Positions 47,118 through 53,380 of a stretch of DNA of 64,000 nt are shown piece by piece. Position 1 is the stretch's first letter. Every line of letters starts with the position of its first letter. The DNA is taken from assembly GCF_900091315.1 (NCBI RefSeq), contig NZ_FLSP01000007.1, positions 1-64,000 on the forward strand, read 5' to 3'. Made by a program: the position numbers and the translations under genes. The notes under the pieces are model-generated. The model worked only from the letters and a program-made list of their open reading frames with translations. It ran no database searches and had not been told where the DNA came from. Origin of the DNA: Streptomyces sp. DI166 (GTDB lineage Bacteria; Actinomycetota; Actinomycetes; Streptomycetales; Streptomycetaceae).

Positions 47118-48818
47118 TCAGTCCTCGGGCAGCTCGACCGGTGCGATCTCGTCGTACAGGTCGCCCGGGCCGGGGTTGGTCGGGTCGGTCTCGCCGCCGA
47201 AGTGGTGCATGACGCCCCACACCGCGTTCAGCGCCGTCTGCACCGCGCCCTCGGCCCAGCCGGCCGTCCAGGAGATGTCGTCGCCGGCGAGGAAGATGCC
47301 GCGCTTGTCCTCGGGCAGCCGGTCCTGCATGAAGTGCGTGAACAGGCGCCGCTGGTAGCGGTAGTGGCCGGGCAGGTTGGCCTTGAACGCGCCCATGAAG
47401 TAGGGCTCGTTCTCCCAGGAGACGGTGACCGGGTTGCCGATGATGTGCTTGCGGATGTCGACCTTGGGATAGATCTCGCCGAGCGACTTCAGCATGACCT
47501 CCATCCGTTCCTGCGCGGACAGCGGCAGCCACTTCAGGCTGTCGTCGCACCAGGTGTAGGACAGGCAGATCACGGCGGGCTGGTCGGGGCCGTTGTCGAG
47601 GAGGTACGTGCCGCGCGTCATACGGTCGGTGAGGGTCATCGACATCACGTCCCGGCCGGTCTCCTCGTCCTTGTCCAGCCAGAACGGCCGGTCCACGGGG
47701 ACGAACAGCTTCGAGCTCTCCATGTAGTGGGTGCGCTCGATCGCGGTCCAGTGGTCGATCGGGAAGAGCGAGTCGTCGCAGTCGATCTTCGACAGCAGCA
47801 TCCAGGACTGCGCGGTGAAGATCGCGGCCGGGTAGGTGCGGATGTCGCCGTTGGCGTCGGTCACGGTGATCCGGTTGCCGGCGGCGCGGTGCAGGCGGGT
47901 CACGGCCGGACGGGGCGCGCGGTTCTCGTGCAGCGAGGCCAGCGAGGTGCCCTGGGCCCAGTGCACGATCTTCTCCGGCTCGCGCTCCCACATGCGCAGC
48001 GGCAGCTGCTGGGAGCCGCCGACGATGCCGCGGTGGTGGTCGTCGGCCTCGGTGTAGACGACGCGCAGGATCTCCAGGATGGAGTTGGGGAAGTCGGTGT
48101 CCCAGCCGCCGGTGCCGAAGCCGACCTGGCCGAAGATCTCGCGGTGCCGGAAGGACTTGAAGGCCTCGGAGTCGCAGAGGAAGCCGTAGAAGGTCTGGTT
48201 GTCGAGCTTCTCCACGAGCTTCGCCCAGATCTCACGGATCCGCGGCACGTCGCGCTCGCGCATCGCGCGGTTCATGTCGGAGAAGTCGGCGCCCTCGTCG
48301 AGGCACTTGTTCCACGCCTCGGCGACGTCGCGGTAGACCTGCGGCAGGTCGTCGATGGTCTCGGCGTAGTGGCTCTCGCCCTTGAGGTCGACGACGGTCG
48401 ACGGGGTGGCCTCGGCGAGCGGGTTCGGGAACGGCGCGGTCTTCAGGCCGACCAGGTCGATGTAGTGCTGGAGGGCGGTGGAGGACGGCGGGAAGCGCAT
48501 GGCGCCCATCTCCGCGGTCAGGCCCTCGGTCTCCGGGCCGTCGAAGCCGACGGTGCGCAGCCGGCCGCCGATCTGGTCGGCCTCGTAGACGACGGGCTTG
48601 AGGCCCATCTTCATCAGCTCGTACGCGGCCACGATGCCGGACAGACCGCCGCCGATGACCGCGACCTCGGTGCCGTGCTCGGTCGCCGGGATCTGACCCA
48701 GGCCCGCCGGGTGGGCGAGGTAGTCGTCGTAGGCGTACGGGAAATCCGGACCGAACATGGTGATCGGCGGCTGCTGCTCGTCGGCGTGCTGGACGGCGTT
48801 GGGCACCATGGACGTCAT
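47118..48818 (-). CDS. Flavin-dependent amine/L-amino acid oxidase
   Basis: A 566-aa FAD enzyme. The Rossmann motif EVAVIGGGLSGIVAAYELMK lies near residue 52, the flavin-adjacent GGRLRT near 84 and the C-terminal FAD segment GIFLAGDDISWTAGWAEGAV near 520. It belongs to the flavin amine-oxidase superfamily near tryptophan 2-monooxygenase and L-amino acid oxidases. No signal peptide, so it works in the cytosol. It lies 47 bp behind the nitrilase gene. The pair could turn an amino acid into an amide and then an acid, as in the indole-3-acetamide route, but the substrate cannot be read from sequence. Confidence 0.88.
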   Translation of the reverse strand: MTSMVPNAVQHADEQQPPITMFGPDFPYAYDDYLAHPAGLGQIPATEHGTEVAVIGGGLSGIVAAYELMKMGLKPVVYEADQIGGRLRTVGFDGPETEGLTAEMGAMRFPPSSTALQHYIDLVGLKTAPFPNPLAEATPSTVVDLKGESHYAETIDDLPQVYRDVAEAWNKCLDEGADFSDMNRAMRERDVPRIREIWAKLVEKLDNQTFYGFLCDSEAFKSFRHREIFGQVGFGTGGWDTDFPNSILEILRVVYTEADDHHRGIVGGSQQLPLRMWEREPEKIVHWAQGTSLASLHENRAPRPAVTRLHRAAGNRITVTDANGDIRTYPAAIFTAQSWMLLSKIDCDDSLFPIDHWTAIERTHYMESSKLFVPVDRPFWLDKDEETGRDVMSMTLTDRMTRGTYLLDNGPDQPAVICLSYTWCDDSLKWLPLSAQERMEVMLKSLGEIYPKVDIRKHIIGNPVTVSWENEPYFMGAFKANLPGHYRYQRRLFTHFMQDRLPEDKRGIFLAGDDISWTAGWAEGAVQTALNAVWGVMHHFGGETDPTNPGPGDLYDEIAPVELPED

Positions 48819-48865: not shown

Positions 48866-49654
48866 TCAGACGAGGGACCCGTAGAGGCCGGGACGGCGGT
48901 CCTTCAGGTACGGGTTGGCCTCGCGGGAGGCGGCGAGGAGGACGGGGTCGGTGTCGGCGAACACCAGGTCCTCCTCGCGTCCGGCGCGCGTGCGGGCGAC
49001 GCCGTCGGGGCCGGCCAGGGTGGAGAGGCCGACGAACTCGAACTCCCCCTCGCGGCCTACGCGGTTGACGTAGGCCACGTACATCTGGTTCTCGAAGGCG
49101 CGCACCGGGATCATCGACTCGGCGACGAACTGGAACGGGTGCATCTGCGCCGTCGGCACGACCAGCAGGTCGGTGCCGGCGAGGGCGTGGGCCCGGACGT
49201 TCTCCGGGAACTCGACGTCGTAGCAGATGAGGATGCCGACGCGGAGACCGTTCAGCTCGGCCTGCACCACCTGCTGCTCACCGGGGGTGAAGTGGTCCCG
49301 CTCGAAGCAGCCGAAGAGGTGGGTCTTGCGGTAGTTCGCGAGGCGGGTGCCGTCGGCGGAGATCAGCTGGGCGGAGTTGTAGACGGTCCCGCCGTCGCGC
49401 TCGGGGTAGCCGTACGCGACGGCGAGTCCGTGCCGGGTGGCGATCTCAGCGACGGTGTCCGCGCTGTCGCCGTCGGCGGCCTCGGCGAGTCGGGCGATGT
49501 CGTCGCCGATCGCGTACCCGGTGAGGAACATCTCCGGAGCGATCACCAGCCCGGCCCCGGCAGCGGCGGCACGGCCCGCGGCGTCGTCGAGCACCTTCAG
49601 GTTCTCGACGACCGAACCGGGGCGTCCGGAGCTCTGGAGCAGGGCGGTGCGCAT
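48866..49654 (-). CDS. Carbon-nitrogen hydrolase (nitrilase superfamily amidase)
   Basis: A 262-aa enzyme with the catalytic triad of the superfamily: Glu in APEMFLTGY (about 40), Lys in NYRKTHLFG (about 111) and Cys in VGILICYDVEFPENVR (about 145). It hydrolyses an amide or similar C-N bond. It is the first gene of an operon with the amine oxidase, and the region upstream carries the shared TTGCG element also found before the APC permease. The product of the oxidase may be its substrate. Confidence 0.93.
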   Translation of the reverse strand: MRTALLQSSGRPGSVVENLKVLDDAAGRAAAAGAGLVIAPEMFLTGYAIGDDIARLAEAADGDSADTVAEIATRHGLAVAYGYPERDGGTVYNSAQLISADGTRLANYRKTHLFGCFERDHFTPGEQQVVQAELNGLRVGILICYDVEFPENVRAHALAGTDLLVVPTAQMHPFQFVAESMIPVRAFENQMYVAYVNRVGREGEFEFVGLSTLAGPDGVARTRAGREEDLVFADTDPVLLAASREANPYLKDRRPGLYGSLV

Positions 49655-49737
49655 GCGTGATCCTCACCGGGCAAAGGGGGTTTGGGGGGCCATAAAGAAG
49701 GTACGGTCGCGCCGTCGACCCGGACAAGAAGAACCCG

Positions 49738-49797
49738 TTGCGCGCCGGTGAGCGAATCATTGCGTCGACAGGGCCTTCGACGGCGATTCGTTGCACG
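49738..49797. promoter_or_regulatory. Composite TTGCG element upstream of the nitrilase-oxidase operon
   Basis: TTGCGC (49738), ATCATTGCGT (49756-49765) and TTCGTTGCACG (49787-49797). The same three parts in the same order and nearly the same spacing occur before the APC permease (53292-53349). The spaced TTGC half-sites fit the multi-site binding of Lrp-type regulators. Confidence 0.72.
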
Positions 49798-49800
49798 CCC

Positions 49801-51030
49801 CTACGGCCGCTCCGGAACCTGCCCGGACAGTGCCCGGGCCGGACGCCACCGTCGCACCGAGGCCCAGGCCAGCGCCCACACCAGGTACGGCACCGCGAAC
49901 GCCGCGAACACCGTGCCGTGGGAGACGCGGTCGCCCGCCACCGCGTACGCCCCGTACACCAGGACCGTCATCAGTTCCGTGCCCAGGCCCGCCACCGAGG
50001 TCAGGGTCGCCCGGCCGCCTTCCTCGATGCGGTGCTGGAGGCGGACGTCGGCGAGGATCGTGGCCAGCTGGAAGCCCGCGAAGGCGACGGCGACCAGGGC
50101 AAGGCCGGCGGGTGTGCGCAGCGCGGCGCCGAGCGCCAGGGCGAGCCCGGACACCGCGATCAGGCCGAGGAAACCCGGCGTGCCGAGGCGTTCGGCCGGG
50201 CCCGCCAGCAGGCTGACCGCCGTGACCGCGGCCCAGATCAGCAGCAGGGCGTACGGGACGAAGCCGTCGGGGACGCCGGTCTCTCGGACCAGGAGGGGCG
50301 AGTACTCGTCCAGCGCGCCCCAGACGCAGGCCACCGCCGGGACCAGCAGCAGCGCGCGGCGCAGGGAGCGGTTCCGGCGGGCCGTCGACAGTCCGGTGCG
50401 CAGGGTCCGCGCCCAGCCTTCGTCGTCGGGCGTGCGGCCCCGGTCGTCCGGGAAGCGGGTGGCCACGAGCGACGCCAGCAGCGACGAGGCGACGCTCGCC
50501 GCGCCGACGGCCGGGTAGCCGCCCCACGCGAACACCGGGCCCGCCGCCCCCATCGCCCCGATCACACCGAGCAGGCCCGCCGCCCGGGCCCGTCCGAGCA
50601 CCCGGGCGTACCGGTCGGCGGCGCCAAGCCGGTCCAGTTCGTCGTAGACCAGGGCCTCCTGCGCGCCGGAGGCCAGCGCGCCGCTGATCCCCCACAGGAC
50701 GAAGCCGACCGCGAAGGACCAGTACGTGGGCACGAGCACCCACAGGGCGAACCCGGCCGCGGTCAGCAGCGGGCCCAGCCACAGCAGCAGCCGGCGCGAG
50801 ACGGCGTCGGCCCAGGCGCCGGAGGGCACCTCGAACAGGACGCCGGAGATCGACCACAGGGCGAACAGTGAGGAGATCTGCCACAGCGACAGCCCGCTGT
50901 CGGCGAAGAGCAGCGCGTACAGCGGGTAGAGCAGGACGAGGTTCTGGAGGAACTCGTAGCCGTACAGCGTGGCCGTGAGCCGTCGGACGCCGACGGAGGT
51001 GGTGGGCACACGCGCGGGTGAAAGTGTCAT
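49801..51030 (-). CDS. MFS transporter
   Basis: A 409-aa membrane protein with about twelve helices (LYGYEFLQNLVLLYPLYALL; ISGVLFEVPSGAWADAVSRR as loop 2-3). The motif EVPSGAWAD and LWGISGALASGAQEALVYDE are typical of drug-exporter-like MFS proteins. The start ATG 51030 has GGAAGG upstream. It lies between the two TTGCG-element operons but does not have the element itself, so it may be independently controlled. Confidence 0.86.
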   Translation of the reverse strand: MTLSPARVPTTSVGVRRLTATLYGYEFLQNLVLLYPLYALLFADSGLSLWQISSLFALWSISGVLFEVPSGAWADAVSRRLLLWLGPLLTAAGFALWVLVPTYWSFAVGFVLWGISGALASGAQEALVYDELDRLGAADRYARVLGRARAAGLLGVIGAMGAAGPVFAWGGYPAVGAASVASSLLASLVATRFPDDRGRTPDDEGWARTLRTGLSTARRNRSLRRALLLVPAVACVWGALDEYSPLLVRETGVPDGFVPYALLLIWAAVTAVSLLAGPAERLGTPGFLGLIAVSGLALALGAALRTPAGLALVAVAFAGFQLATILADVRLQHRIEEGGRATLTSVAGLGTELMTVLVYGAYAVAGDRVSHGTVFAAFAVPYLVWALAWASVRRWRPARALSGQVPERP

Positions 51031-51174
51031 GAGGCCTTCCCGTGGGGCGATGCGGACGCGAGTGGACGGCGTCCGCGGCGGCCCTCGGGAGGCACGACGC
51101 GTTATGGATCAATGTCGCCAGGTCATGACATCGATGGTAGGCCGCTCCGGCCGTGATCGACAGCGGAATTCCGC

Positions 51175-51627
51175 TTACGTCGGCGACCCCGACGAGAAGC
51201 GCCTGAGCAGCGGGGAGAGCACCAGCACCGACTTCGTGCGCTCCACGAACGGCTCCCCCGCGATCCGCTCCAGCACCCTCTCGAAGTGCCGCATGTCGGA
51301 GGCGAAGACCTGTGCGACGGCGTCCGCGTCCCCGGTGACGGTGGACGCGGCCACGACCTCCTGGTACCGCTCAAGACCGCGCTGGATGGTCTCCGGCGAG
51401 GTGTTGCGGCGGCAGTAGATCTCGACGAACCCCTCGGTCTCCCAGCCGAGCGCCGCCGGGTCCACCCGCACGGTGAATCCGGTGATGGCCCCCGTGGCGC
51501 GCAGCCGGTCCACGCGCCGCTTCACGGCGGGCGCGGACAGGCCGACGAGTTGCCCGATGTCGGCGTAGGAGCGACGGGCGTCCTCGGCGAGGGCGTGCAC
51601 GATGCGTTCGTCGAGATCGTTCAGCAC
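51175..51627 (-). CDS. Lrp/AsnC family regulator
   Basis: A 150-aa regulator. Helix-turn-helix: YADIGQLVGLSAPAVKRRVD (residues about 21-40); ligand-binding RAM domain (about 67-140, with VVAASTVTGDADAVAQVFAS). GTG 51627 starts 10 bp behind the APC permease stop, so both are on one transcript. It is the obvious candidate for binding the shared TTGCG element before its own operon and before the nitrilase-oxidase operon. The ligand is probably an amino acid or its breakdown product. Confidence 0.93.
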   Translation of the reverse strand: MLNDLDERIVHALAEDARRSYADIGQLVGLSAPAVKRRVDRLRATGAITGFTVRVDPAALGWETEGFVEIYCRRNTSPETIQRGLERYQEVVAASTVTGDADAVAQVFASDMRHFERVLERIAGEPFVERTKSVLVLSPLLRRFSSGSPT

Positions 51628-51637
51628 TGCGGGTGGG

Positions 51638-53143
51638 TCACTTCACTTCTGGTGTTGCGGGAGCTTCGGGCGCTGCGAGCGCTTCCCCCGTCGCGAGACG
51701 GGAACGGCGGTGGCCGTACAGGAAGTAGAACACGAGACCCGCCGCCATCCAGAACCCGAAGACGACCCAGGTCACGGTGTCGAGGCTGAACATGTTGTAC
51801 GCGCAGAAGAGGAAGCCGATGACCGGCAGCACCGGGCCGAACGGCACCTTGAAGGTCCGCTCCAGCTCGGGGCGCTTGTAGCGCAGCACGATCACCGCGA
51901 TGTTGACCAGGGCGAAGGCGAACAGCGTGCCGATGCTGGTGGCGTCGACGAGCTTGCCGAGCGGGATGAGCGCGGCGAGGACACCGCAGAAGGCGGACAC
52001 CAGGACGGTGTTGAGGCGCGGGGTGCCGGTCCGGCGGTCGACCTTGCCGAGCGCCTTGGGCACCAGGCCGTCGCGGGACATGGCGAAGAGGATGCGGGTC
52101 TGGCCGTAGAGGACGGTCAGGACCACGGAGGCGATGGAGATGACCGCGCCGAGGGCGAGCAGGGTGCCCCAGAAGGTCTGGCCGCTGACGTCGTTCATGA
52201 TCGCCGCGAGGGAGGCCTCGGAGCCCTCGAACTTGGTCCAGTTCCAGGCGCCGACGGCGACACCGGCGACCAGCACGTACAGCGCGGTGACGATGATCAG
52301 CGAGAGCATGATCGCGCGCGGCAGGTCCTTCTTGGGGTTCTTGGCCTCCTCACCGGCGGTGGAGGCGGCGTCGAAACCGATGTACGAGAAGAACAGGGTG
52401 GCTCCGGCGGCGCTGACGCCCGCCATGCCGAGCGGCATGAAGTCCTCGTAGTTGCCGGACTTGAAGCCCATGAAGCCGACCGCGCAGAACAGCACCAGCG
52501 CGGCGATCTTCACGGCGACCATGATCGTGTTGGCGCGGGCGGACTCCCGGACGCCGCCGAGCAGGAAGATCATCGCCAGGACCACGACGAGCAGCGCGGG
52601 CAGGTTGACGATGCCGCCCTCGCCGGGCGCCGAGGACAGCGCGTCGGGGATGGTGACGCCGATGGTGCCGTCGAGGAGTTCGTTGAGGTACTCGCCCCAG
52701 CCGACCGCGACCGCGGCCACCGAGACGCCGTACTCCAGCACCAGGCACCAGCCGCAGACCCAGGCGACGAGTTCGCCCATCGTTGCGTACGCGTACGAGT
52801 AGGAGGAGCCGGCGACCGGGATGCTGCCCGCCAGCTCGGCGTAGGACAGGGCCGAGAACAGGGCCGTGAGTCCGGCTATGACGAAGGCCAGGGTGACGGC
52901 GGGTCCGGCCTCGGGGACGGCGTCGCCGAGGACGACGAAGATGCCGGTGCCGAGGGTGGCACCGATGCTGATCATGGTGAGCTGCCACAGGCCCAGGGAG
53001 CGCTTGAGCGAGCCTCCCTCACCCTGGCCGCCCTCGGCGACCAGGAGTTCCACGGGCTTGCGTCGCATCAGACGCGCGCCGATCCCCGGGGACGGTGGGG
53101 CGGCCTGGCCTCTGTTCTGCGGGGGTGCGCCTTGGTCGAGCAC
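51638..53143 (-). CDS. APC family amino acid permease
   Basis: A 501-aa transporter with about twelve to thirteen helices. The first helix has the APC motif SIGATLGTGIFVVLGD, and helix 6 has FFSYIGFDAASTAGEEAKNP. It resembles the cationic amino acid transporter (CAT/YfnA) branch. GTG 53143 has AAGGAG upstream. It is first in an operon with the Lrp regulator and carries the TTGCG element about 170-200 bp upstream. It likely brings in the amine or amino acid oxidised by the neighbouring operon. Confidence 0.93.
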   Translation of the reverse strand: MLDQGAPPQNRGQAAPPSPGIGARLMRRKPVELLVAEGGQGEGGSLKRSLGLWQLTMISIGATLGTGIFVVLGDAVPEAGPAVTLAFVIAGLTALFSALSYAELAGSIPVAGSSYSYAYATMGELVAWVCGWCLVLEYGVSVAAVAVGWGEYLNELLDGTIGVTIPDALSSAPGEGGIVNLPALLVVVLAMIFLLGGVRESARANTIMVAVKIAALVLFCAVGFMGFKSGNYEDFMPLGMAGVSAAGATLFFSYIGFDAASTAGEEAKNPKKDLPRAIMLSLIIVTALYVLVAGVAVGAWNWTKFEGSEASLAAIMNDVSGQTFWGTLLALGAVISIASVVLTVLYGQTRILFAMSRDGLVPKALGKVDRRTGTPRLNTVLVSAFCGVLAALIPLGKLVDATSIGTLFAFALVNIAVIVLRYKRPELERTFKVPFGPVLPVIGFLFCAYNMFSLDTVTWVVFGFWMAAGLVFYFLYGHRRSRLATGEALAAPEAPATPEVK

Positions 53144-53291
53144 GCGCTGGCTCCTTCATCGCTGCCGGTCAGGGGGACGGGGACCGGCGGCACCCCCACG
53201 GACAGGGGGGACCCACCGAGCGGGGTCCCCGCCACGCCACGTACGAGGCGACAGCCTATGAGCGGGGCGTTGCCGTTGTAATGCAGCAACC

Positions 53292-53349
53292 TTGCGCACA
53301 CCCGCAAGATCATTGCGTTCCTGCGGACTGCGCGGATGTTCGTTGCACG
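53292..53349. promoter_or_regulatory. Composite TTGCG element upstream of the APC-Lrp operon
   Basis: TTGCGC (53292), ATCATTGCGT (53309-53318) and TTCGTTGCACG (53339-53349); a further TTGCGC lies at about 53364. It matches the element at 49738-49797. Confidence 0.72.
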
Positions 53350-53380
53350 GCGGCTTTCGAGCGTTGCGCGGAGCCCCGTT

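What the first reader, a model, noticed from the sequence alone, without database searches (positions are those of the whole stretch)
49738..53349. Same composite TTGCG element before two neighbouring operons
TTGCGC, ATCATTGCGT and TTCGTTGCACG occur in this order at 49738/49756/49787 and at 53292/53309/53339. The 10-mer and 11-mer are identical and the spacers differ by one base (21 and 20). The operons are nitrilase-amine oxidase and APC permease-Lrp regulator, so a local Lrp-controlled regulon for uptake and oxidation of an amino acid or amine is predicted. The MFS operon between them lacks the element.
Basis: partly seen in the sequence, partly recalled or inferred. Interest (0 to 1): 0.66.

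Follow-up and report, generated by a model that had tools for sequence, protein, structure and literature searches.

The report
Shared Lrp-type operator for amino-acid breakdown
Two neighbouring operons in this Streptomyces genome start with the same ladder of GCAA repeats, almost certainly the landing site of the Lrp-family regulator encoded beside them, which probably switches on uptake and oxidative breakdown of a basic amino acid such as arginine or lysine.

Summary
In detail: the composite occurs exactly twice in the window, never in shuffles, and a related pattern only at these two places in the 8.87 Mb genome. Read with the genes (minus strand) it is a ladder of GCAA half-sites, found upstream of the permease in 64 of 64 and of the nitrilase in 74 of 74 distinct Streptomyces upstream regions that could be read. 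In both promoters GCAA lies 14, 35-36 and 65-67 nt before the -35: activator-like geometry. Of 16 Lrp/AsnC-domain genes in this genome only one other has this Lrp's recognition-helix motif; it precedes dimethylargininase and ornithine-aminotransferase genes whose promoter has the same ladder with mostly GCAG half-sites. Outside the genus, 12 of 24 loci with a related Lrp carry the two-site form near it. The 'amine oxidase' is 60% identical to a lysine 2-monooxygenase/oxidase and keeps its basic-substrate aspartate. So this is a local Lrp regulon for basic amino-acid catabolism: a new member of a known kind. Binding, direction of control and ligand are untested.

The parts
49787..49797 (-). nitrilase promoter, ladder site 1 (CGTGCAACGAA; GCAA start 67 nt upstream of -35)
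   Evidence: GCAA at distance 67 in 71 of the 73 promoters with a -35/-10 pair
49756..49765 (-). nitrilase promoter, ladder site 2 (ACGCAATGAT; GCAA 36 nt upstream of -35)
   Evidence: distance 36 in 73 of 73
49738..49743 (-). nitrilase promoter, ladder site 3 (GCGCAA; GCAA 14 nt upstream of -35)
   Evidence: distance 14 in 73 of 73
49722..49727 (-). predicted -35 of the nitrilase operon, TTGTCC
   Evidence: TTGTCC in 70 of 73
49698..49703 (-). predicted -10 of the nitrilase operon, TACCTT (18-nt spacer)
53362..53369 (-). permease promoter, extra distal repeat (GCGCAACG)
   Evidence: GCAA at this place in 49 of 64 permease upstream regions
53339..53349 (-). permease promoter, ladder site 1 (CGTGCAACGAA; GCAA 65 nt upstream of -35)
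   Evidence: distance 65 in 61 of 64
53303..53317 (-). permease promoter, ladder site 2, 15-bp near-palindrome CGCAATGATCTTGCG (GCAA 35 nt upstream of -35)
   Evidence: distance 35 in 64 of 64; right arm TTGC in 45 of 64, [TAG]TGC in 61 of 64
53292..53297 (-). permease promoter, ladder site 3 (GCGCAA; GCAA 14 nt upstream of -35)
   Evidence: distance 14 in 62 of 64
53276..53281 (-). predicted -35 of the permease-lrp operon, TTACAA
53253..53258 (-). predicted -10 of the permease-lrp operon, TAGGCT (17-nt spacer here; 18 in 61 of 64)
51638..53143 (-). APC-family permease, cationic-amino-acid-transporter-like
   Evidence: TIGR00909 583 bits, cutoff 556.8; best solved relatives 5oqt/6f34, then cationic transporters CAT4 and CAT1
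51175..51627 (-). Lrp/AsnC-family regulator, proposed binder of the ladders; starts 10 nt after the permease stop, so probably co-transcribed with it
   Evidence: PF13404 + PF01037; helix motif AVKRR found in only one other of the genome's 16 Lrp/AsnC loci
48866..49654 (-). carbon-nitrogen hydrolase (nitrilase superfamily), proposed amide hydrolase; E41, K110, C144
   Evidence: PF00795; the three residues in 74 of 74 aligned matches
47118..48818 (-). flavin L-amino-acid 2-monooxygenase/oxidase-type enzyme for a basic amino acid
   Evidence: 60% identical over 551 aligned residues to L-AAO/MOG 3we0; R108, W239, D242, Y421, W423, W521 unchanged in every distinct match that aligns there, 31 to 70 of them

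Best explanation
The element is a multi-site operator of the neighbouring Lrp/AsnC protein (51175-51627), perhaps shared with its close paralogue. Lrp dimers, probably as an octamer, bind three helically phased sites with half-site CGCAA, 30-31 and 21-22 bp apart (about 3 and 2 turns), the last starting 14 nt before the -35, and activate (a) the permease-lrp operon and (b) the nitrilase-flavoenzyme operon when a basic amino acid (arginine, lysine or ornithine) is present. The permease imports it, the flavoenzyme oxidatively decarboxylates it to an amide, the nitrilase-fold enzyme hydrolyses the amide. lrp, being behind the permease, is under its own ladder. SHOWN here: the shared ladder, its conservation, its fixed distance to a conserved promoter, its company with this Lrp clade, enzyme family and substrate-charge residues. 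INFERRED: binding, activation rather than repression, the ligand, and which basic amino acid.
For: Conservation: best ladder score 17-20 of 20 in 64/64 permease and 74/74 nitrilase upstreams, at most 15 in shuffles; spacing 30/21 in 62 of 64, 31/22 in 73 of 74. Geometry: all three repeats at fixed distances to a -35/-10 pair in 72/74, 61/64 and, for the paralogue's promoter, 16/22; mean 0 in 50 mononucleotide shuffles per set. Whole-genome scan: three GCAR at these spacings plus TT gives 4 hits in 8.87 Mb: nitrilase, permease, the promoter at the end of the paralogous lrp, and one inside a coding ORF; reversed controls 0. Helix: AVKRR occurs in only 2 of the 16 Lrp/AsnC loci, the window's and that paralogue's. 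The paralogue's next genes are dimethylargininase and an ornithine aminotransferase homologue. Other families: L221/L248 has Lrp, then a GCAACGAATCG-type ladder, then ornithine aminotransferase; of 30 best class-wide loci 13 have the 2-site form and 9 the 3-site form near the Lrp, 12 and 8 of the 24 outside the genus; counted over whole loci 16 and 12, against 0.25 and 0.1 in shuffles and 1 and 0 reversed. Co-occurrence: of 139 genomes with a nitrilase orthologue (E<=5e-85) 138 have the Lrp orthologue (E<=1e-67), of 11 without it 6 do (Fisher p 4.5e-6, not corrected for kinship; two of the five lacking both are under 85% complete). Enzyme: with PMC5832979 (passages). Inducer: the M. tuberculosis roc cluster (Rv2323c, rocD, rocE) is induced more than 20-fold and its neighbour regulator gene Rv2324 6-fold by arginine (PMC4569260, passages).
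Against: No binding, footprint or expression datum exists here for this Lrp. Of the 30 class-wide loci 17 show neither form near the Lrp by my regex; five of these are genus loci whose permease or nitrilase match reaches to or near the locus edge, 12 are from other families. Thirteen loci with an lrp but no permease match show no ladder before lrp in the 260 nt printed, so autoregulation is not general. In the nitrilase ladder only left half-sites are conserved, not palindromes. G028 has nitrilase and ladder but no Lrp orthologue in the search, though its contig ends just 5' of the ladder. Three residues of the second lysine site of L-AAO/MOG differ (E140K, E344D, Q349I). Loci are not phylogenetically independent.
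Confidence: 0.83

Rival explanations
1. The ladder is the operator of the neighbouring Lrp, but the Lrp represses and the basic amino acid (or a product) relieves repression.
For: Lrp-family proteins act both ways (general knowledge); the permease ladder reaches close to the -35 and some orthologues, the window included, carry a further GCAA inside the promoter spacer.
Against: In three promoter classes the conserved repeats all lie upstream of the -35 at fixed distances, and the commonest permease -35 hexamers (TTACGC, TTTCAG) depart from consensus, which suits an activator.
Confidence: 0.2
2. The paralogous Lrp (C9:63260-63721) binds these two promoters as much as, or instead of, the neighbouring one.
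For: The helix motifs differ at one residue (SAPAVKRRVDRL / SATAVKRRVDRL) and the promoter architecture is the same.
Against: Half-sites differ: the middle site is GCAG in 20 of 21 paralogue promoters and GCAA in 73/73 and 64/64 window-type promoters. Several genomes in which the window-Lrp search finds a single Lrp at E<=1e-40 (no paralogue) still have a ladder match beside the nitrilase, e.g. G012, G063, G098, G102, G105, G107, G117.
Confidence: 0.2
3. The ladder is bound by an unrelated regulator and sits beside the Lrp genes by coincidence.
For: No binding assay was possible; GCAA half-sites are short.
Against: In one genome the architecture occurs at three promoters, and all three belong to operons next to the only two Lrp genes with this helix motif; similar company in other families.
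Confidence: 0.06
4. Chance, or a stretch of DNA copied from one promoter to the other.
For: The two copies share exact 10- and 11-mers.
Against: The one-base spacing difference is kept across the genus (31/22 in 73 of 74, 30/21 in 62 of 64); sequences between the repeats differ freely; shuffles give none.
Confidence: 0.01

Closest known systems
Lrp/AsnC-family local regulators (Lrp, AsnC, LysM, LrpA)
   Same: AsnC-type HTH plus Lrp/AsnC ligand-binding domain; phased multi-site operator (inferred); regulator gene beside amino-acid transport and catabolism genes.
   Different: Scores under the equivalog cut-offs of the named NCBIfam members listed, best LysM 66.3 bits against 180. I recognised no description of a CGCAA ladder with this geometry in my paper searches (open-licence papers, most seen as listings only).
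Rv2324 / Rv2323c-rocD-rocE arginine cluster of Mycobacterium tuberculosis
   Same: Regulator gene beside a dimethylargininase-annotated gene, ornithine aminotransferase and permease, induced by arginine (PMC4569260, passages). The Streptomyces paralogue's next gene matches NCBIfam DiMArgaseDdahMtb, 402 bits against 300; that Rv2323c belongs to this model is inferred from its name.
   Different: The window's target enzymes are a 2-monooxygenase-type flavoenzyme and a nitrilase-fold hydrolase. The M. tuberculosis promoter and Rv2324 were not examined; that Rv2324 is AsnC/Lrp-type is recalled.
L-AAO/MOG of Pseudomonas sp. AIU 813; DavB/DavA lysine 2-monooxygenase and 5-aminovaleramidase
   Same: Flavoenzyme 60% identical to L-AAO/MOG, with the active-site charge and cage residues kept; paired with an amide-hydrolase-fold gene as davB and davA are paired functions (PMC5054628, abstract start in a listing).
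   Different: A515 is G520, C254 is A258, Q258 is H262, without exception in the orthologues aligned there; three second-site residues differ; the substrate may be arginine rather than lysine.
Streptomyces arginine monooxygenase / 4-guanidinobutyramide hydrolase (azalomycin starter unit)
   Same: Same two-step chemistry on a basic amino acid in Streptomyces (PMC5082578, passages).
   Different: That pathway feeds a polyketide. The paper states that S. lividans has no arginine monooxygenase; whether S. lividans carries the window's enzyme was not checked, so this may count against arginine.

Membership tests
Lrp/AsnC transcriptional regulator (protein 51175-51627) | AsnC-type HTH and Lrp/AsnC ligand-binding domain | tested here: met
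   PF13404 58.3 bits and PF01037 53 bits, both over cut-off
Lrp/AsnC transcriptional regulator (protein 51175-51627) | binds phased, dyad-symmetric sites | tested here: inconclusive
   phased conserved sites exist; only the permease middle site is clearly palindromic; binding not testable here
named equivalogs (LysM, AsnC, Lrp, LrpA) | NCBIfam equivalog cut-off | tested here: not met
   best 66.3 bits against 180; not filed as any of these
Clade of actinomycete Lrps next to ddaH/rocD | recognition-helix motif and common clade | tested here: met
   motif; tree: 45 of 53 rows on one side of a 94/97 branch, just short of the tool's strong mark, with only 8 of the genome's 14 other Lrp/AsnC genes included
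Clade of actinomycete Lrps next to ddaH/rocD | GCAR ladder near the Lrp gene | tested here: inconclusive
   13 of 30 class-wide loci (12 of 24 outside the genus), 17 of 30 without
L-lysine 2-monooxygenase / L-AAO-MOG | overall homology and the aspartate (D238) that binds the side-chain charge | tested here: met
   801.9 bits, 60% identity, D238 = D242
L-lysine 2-monooxygenase / L-AAO-MOG | monooxygenase rather than oxidase activity; lysine as substrate | not testable with these tools
   C254, which shifts the activity ratio (PMC5832979, passages), is Ala here; needs enzyme assay
nitrilase superfamily (CN hydrolase) | Glu-Lys-Cys triad | tested here: met
   PF00795; E41, K110, C144 in 74 of 74 matches; positions assigned from the recalled superfamily motif
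NCBIfam nitrilase equivalogs (nitrilase, N-carbamoylputrescine amidase and others) | equivalog cut-off | tested here: not met
   none of the 11 listed passes; best 124.9 bits against 500, aguB 113.6 against 410.25

The most novel reading that the evidence does not exclude
A clade of actinomycete Lrp proteins, marked by the helix motif SA[PST]AVKRRVDRL, has kept one promoter grammar (three CGCAR sites at about -50, -71 and -102, the last 14 nt before the -35) since before several of its families diverged, moving it between basic-amino-acid pathways: dimethylargininase/ornithine aminotransferase in several families, and in Streptomyces a 2-monooxygenase-amide hydrolase pathway plus permease. The two Streptomyces paralogues are insulated by a one-base change of half-site (GCAA versus GCAG) that goes with Pro versus Thr/Ser at one helix position.
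Probability: 0.4. Interest if true: 0.62.

Novelty: new member of a known kind. Interest (0 to 1): 0.5.

Why it matters
It gives a probable function and DNA code to an Lrp whose orthologue (E<=1e-67) is in 144 of 150 Streptomyces genomes sampled, and a code that can be looked for in relatives. It names two uncharacterised operons as a probable route for oxidative breakdown of a basic amino acid, and offers a paralogue pair in which the drift of Lrp specificity can be tested directly.

Tried and rejected
Arginine versus lysine: not settled. The pocket change A515G (the paper links Gly there, together with Phe for W235, to wider pockets in the Trp and Phe enzymes; W235 is kept here) leans to arginine; the statement that S. 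lividans lacks arginine monooxygenase may lean away.

Other regulon members in the genome: model R2 gave one strong hit, the window nitrilase (E 4.1e-19), and 30 weaker ones, the best at E 0.098; the loci of 19 of those 30 were searched with the six window proteins and gave no homologue, and were not otherwise annotated. The fourth hit of the degenerate scan, C3:81871, lies inside a 457-aa ORF. Treated as chance.

RNA element in the permease leader: Rfam none; the alifold consensus had weak stems with little covariation. Not pursued.

Sigma-70 scan: no promoter at its threshold; the promoters named here come from conservation.

Literature by S. coelicolor locus numbers (numbers recalled): 0 papers. 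Searches for this Lrp, its operator or the pathway: nothing that I recognised as describing it; apart from the five papers whose passages I read the hits were seen as listings.

Rows dropped: upstream regions were taken only where the protein match began at residue 1-3 and at least 150 nt of upstream DNA was held, which left out among others L012, L014, L053, L056, L061, L062 and L071 for the permease; one duplicate nitrilase upstream was merged (75 to 74). In one search the -35/-10 pair with a GCAR at 14 nt was preferred where several pairs fitted; one search counts a triple under any fitting pair, for real and shuffled sequence alike.
Full report
WHAT WAS CLAIMED AND WHETHER IT IS THERE. All are where stated. 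The composite pattern has two exact matches in the window and none in 100 dinucleotide shuffles. In the whole 8.87 Mb genome the core pair occurs twice, both here, with no match for the reversed pattern. Both operons run on the minus strand; seen from the genes the element is a ladder of GCAA repeats: CGTGCAACGAA - ACGCAATGAT - GCGCAA. The 200 nt upstream of the MFS start hold no GCAA or TTGC.

CONSERVATION. Eighty named loci were fetched with the Lrp protein, 30 with the nitrilase from 150 genus genomes, 5 with the pattern. Where the gene start and at least 150 nt of upstream DNA were held, 64 permease and 75 nitrilase upstream regions (74 distinct) could be read, the window's own among them. 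All carry the ladder: score 17-20 of 20, against at most 15 in shuffled copies; repeat spacing is 30 and 21 in 62 of 64 permease regions and 31 and 22 in 73 of 74 nitrilase regions. A model of the permease ladder finds a match at E<=0.01, of the permease ladder or more weakly of other copies, in 115 of 150 genus genomes.

PROMOTER GEOMETRY. With a -35/-10 pair sought, GCAA starts fall 14, 36 and 67 nt upstream of the -35 for the nitrilase (73, 73 and 71 of the 73 with a pair) and 14, 35 and 65 for the permease (62, 64 and 61 of 64); the promoter spacer is 18 in 71 of 73 and 61 of 64. prefers the pair with a repeat at 14 where several fit. In one search a complete triple under any fitting pair is found in 72 of 74 and 61 of 64 real regions and on average 0 in 50 rounds of mononucleotide shuffles. 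In the window: TTGTCC (49722-49727) and TACCTT (49698-49703); TTACAA (53276-53281) and TAGGCT (53253-53258). Repeats about two and three helical turns apart that stop just short of the -35 are what one expects of an activator; that is inference.

WHY THE LRP. (i) The genome has 16 loci with the Lrp/AsnC domain. The helix motif AVKRR occurs in two of them: the window's and C9:63260-63721, 54% identical. (ii) That paralogue stands before a dimethylargininase gene (NCBIfam DiMArgaseDdahMtb, 402 bits, cut-off 300) and an ornithine aminotransferase homologue (66% identical to the one of L248). The DNA between carries the same ladder at 14, 35 and 66 nt before TTGTCG or similar; the full triple in 16 of 22 paralogue loci. 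The middle site is GCAG in 20 of 21, the proximal GCAG in 11 and GCAA in 9, the distal GCAG in 15. (iii) Asked only for three GCAR at these spacings plus TT, the whole genome gives four hits: the two promoters of the finding, the paralogue's promoter, and one inside a coding ORF. (iv) In a genome of another family of the order, the Lrp with helix SAPAVKRRVDRL is followed by GCAACGAATCG-(31)-GCAACGAAC-(21)-GCAACGG-(14)-TTGGAA and then an ornithine aminotransferase. The other 10 Lrp-related loci of that search gave one more 2-site match, L230. (v) Of 30 best class-wide loci, 13 have the 2-site form and 9 the 3-site form near the Lrp; 24 of the 30 lie outside the genus, of which 12 and 8, all in two families (labels f19 and f33). 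Over whole loci the counts are 16 and 12, against 0.25 and 0.1 in shuffled and 1 and 0 in reversed loci. Seventeen of the 30 show neither form near the Lrp. (vi) 138 of 139 genomes with a nitrilase orthologue have the Lrp orthologue; 6 of 11 without do (Fisher p 4.5e-6, not corrected for kinship; G074 and G103, which lack both, are 82% and 78% complete). The exception, G028, has its ladder at a contig end. (vii) In a tree of 53 rows the related Lrps, 45 rows, part from 8 other Lrps of the genome (94/97, just short of the tool's strong mark); the window Lrp falls in a strong group of 10 (100/99); some deep branches are long. Thirteen loci have the lrp with no permease match and show no ladder before the lrp in the stretch printed, so the ladder goes with the target operons rather than with the lrp gene.

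WHAT THE OPERONS DO. The flavoenzyme is 60% identical over 551 residues to L-AAO/MOG of Pseudomonas sp. AIU 813, an enzyme limited to basic amino acids (PMC5832979, passages). The aspartate that holds the side-chain charge, and R102, W235, Y416, W418, F473 and W516 are kept; A515 is Gly, C254 Ala, Q258 His; at the second lysine site D393 and K424 are kept while E140, E344 and Q349 are Lys, Asp and Ile. The active-site states hold in every distinct match aligned there (31 to 70), except F478, Ser in one of 51. The partner is a CN hydrolase with E41, K110, C144 in 74 of 74 matches and under the cut-offs of the 11 NCBIfam models listed. The permease passes TIGR00909 and its best solved relatives are 5oqt/6f34 followed by CAT4 and CAT1. 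Together: import, oxidative decarboxylation to an amide, amide hydrolysis, as in lysine catabolism through 5-aminovaleramide or in the Streptomyces arginine pathway to 4-guanidinobutyrate (PMC5082578, passages). Which basic amino acid is open.

LIGAND. In M. tuberculosis the roc cluster with Rv2323c is induced more than 20-fold by arginine and the neighbouring regulator gene Rv2324 6-fold (PMC4569260, passages; the paper also notes homology of Rv2323c to a S. coelicolor dimethylarginine dimethylaminohydrolase). The Streptomyces paralogue beside such a gene is therefore probably arginine-linked, and the window Lrp probably senses a basic amino acid or a product of one. This is inference by kinship of targets; Rv2324 itself was not compared.

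VERDICT. Local Lrp regulons are a known kind. I recognised no account of this one, its operator grammar or its spread in the searches made, which cover only open-licence papers.

Noticed in passing
53146-53250: The permease leader (about 100 nt) has a conserved G/C-rich stretch (GGCGGGGACCCCGCTCGGTGGGTCCC in the window) in most relatives aligned; the predicted stems are weak with little covariation and Rfam has no match.
   Followed up: partly
L178-L181, L186-L189, L191-L212; G000 C9:63260-63792: Paralogous Lrp with a mostly GCAG version of the ladder before dimethylargininase and ornithine aminotransferase genes; the half-site change goes with Pro to Thr/Ser near the start of the recognition helix, except L212, which has Pro and a mixed GCAA/GCAG stretch. 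In the window's genome the ladder overlaps the 3' end of that lrp.
   Followed up: yes
L276, L277, L281: In another family of the class, related Lrps (SASAVKRRLDRL or SPSAVKRRVDRL) have homologues of the flavoenzyme or the permease on the opposite strand behind them: the link between this Lrp clade and these genes is wider than Streptomyces.
   Followed up: no
L230 (G054), about 1368-1467: A more distant Lrp (50% identical) is divergent from a gene that by eye resembles dimethylargininase, with GCAA-(22)-GCAA-(14)-TTGATT between them.
   Followed up: partly
L014, L032, L056: Possible remnants of the permease beside a kept lrp: only a C-terminal match in L014 and L056, and permease-like C-terminal codons seen by eye before lrp in L032; suggests loss of the permease with retention of the regulator.
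   Followed up: no
49801-51030: The MFS gene between the two operons has no match in some loci where lrp lies about 190-510 nt before the nitrilase (L019, L039, L040, L049, L063, L078), so it may be an insertion into an older lrp-nitrilase arrangement.
   Followed up: partly
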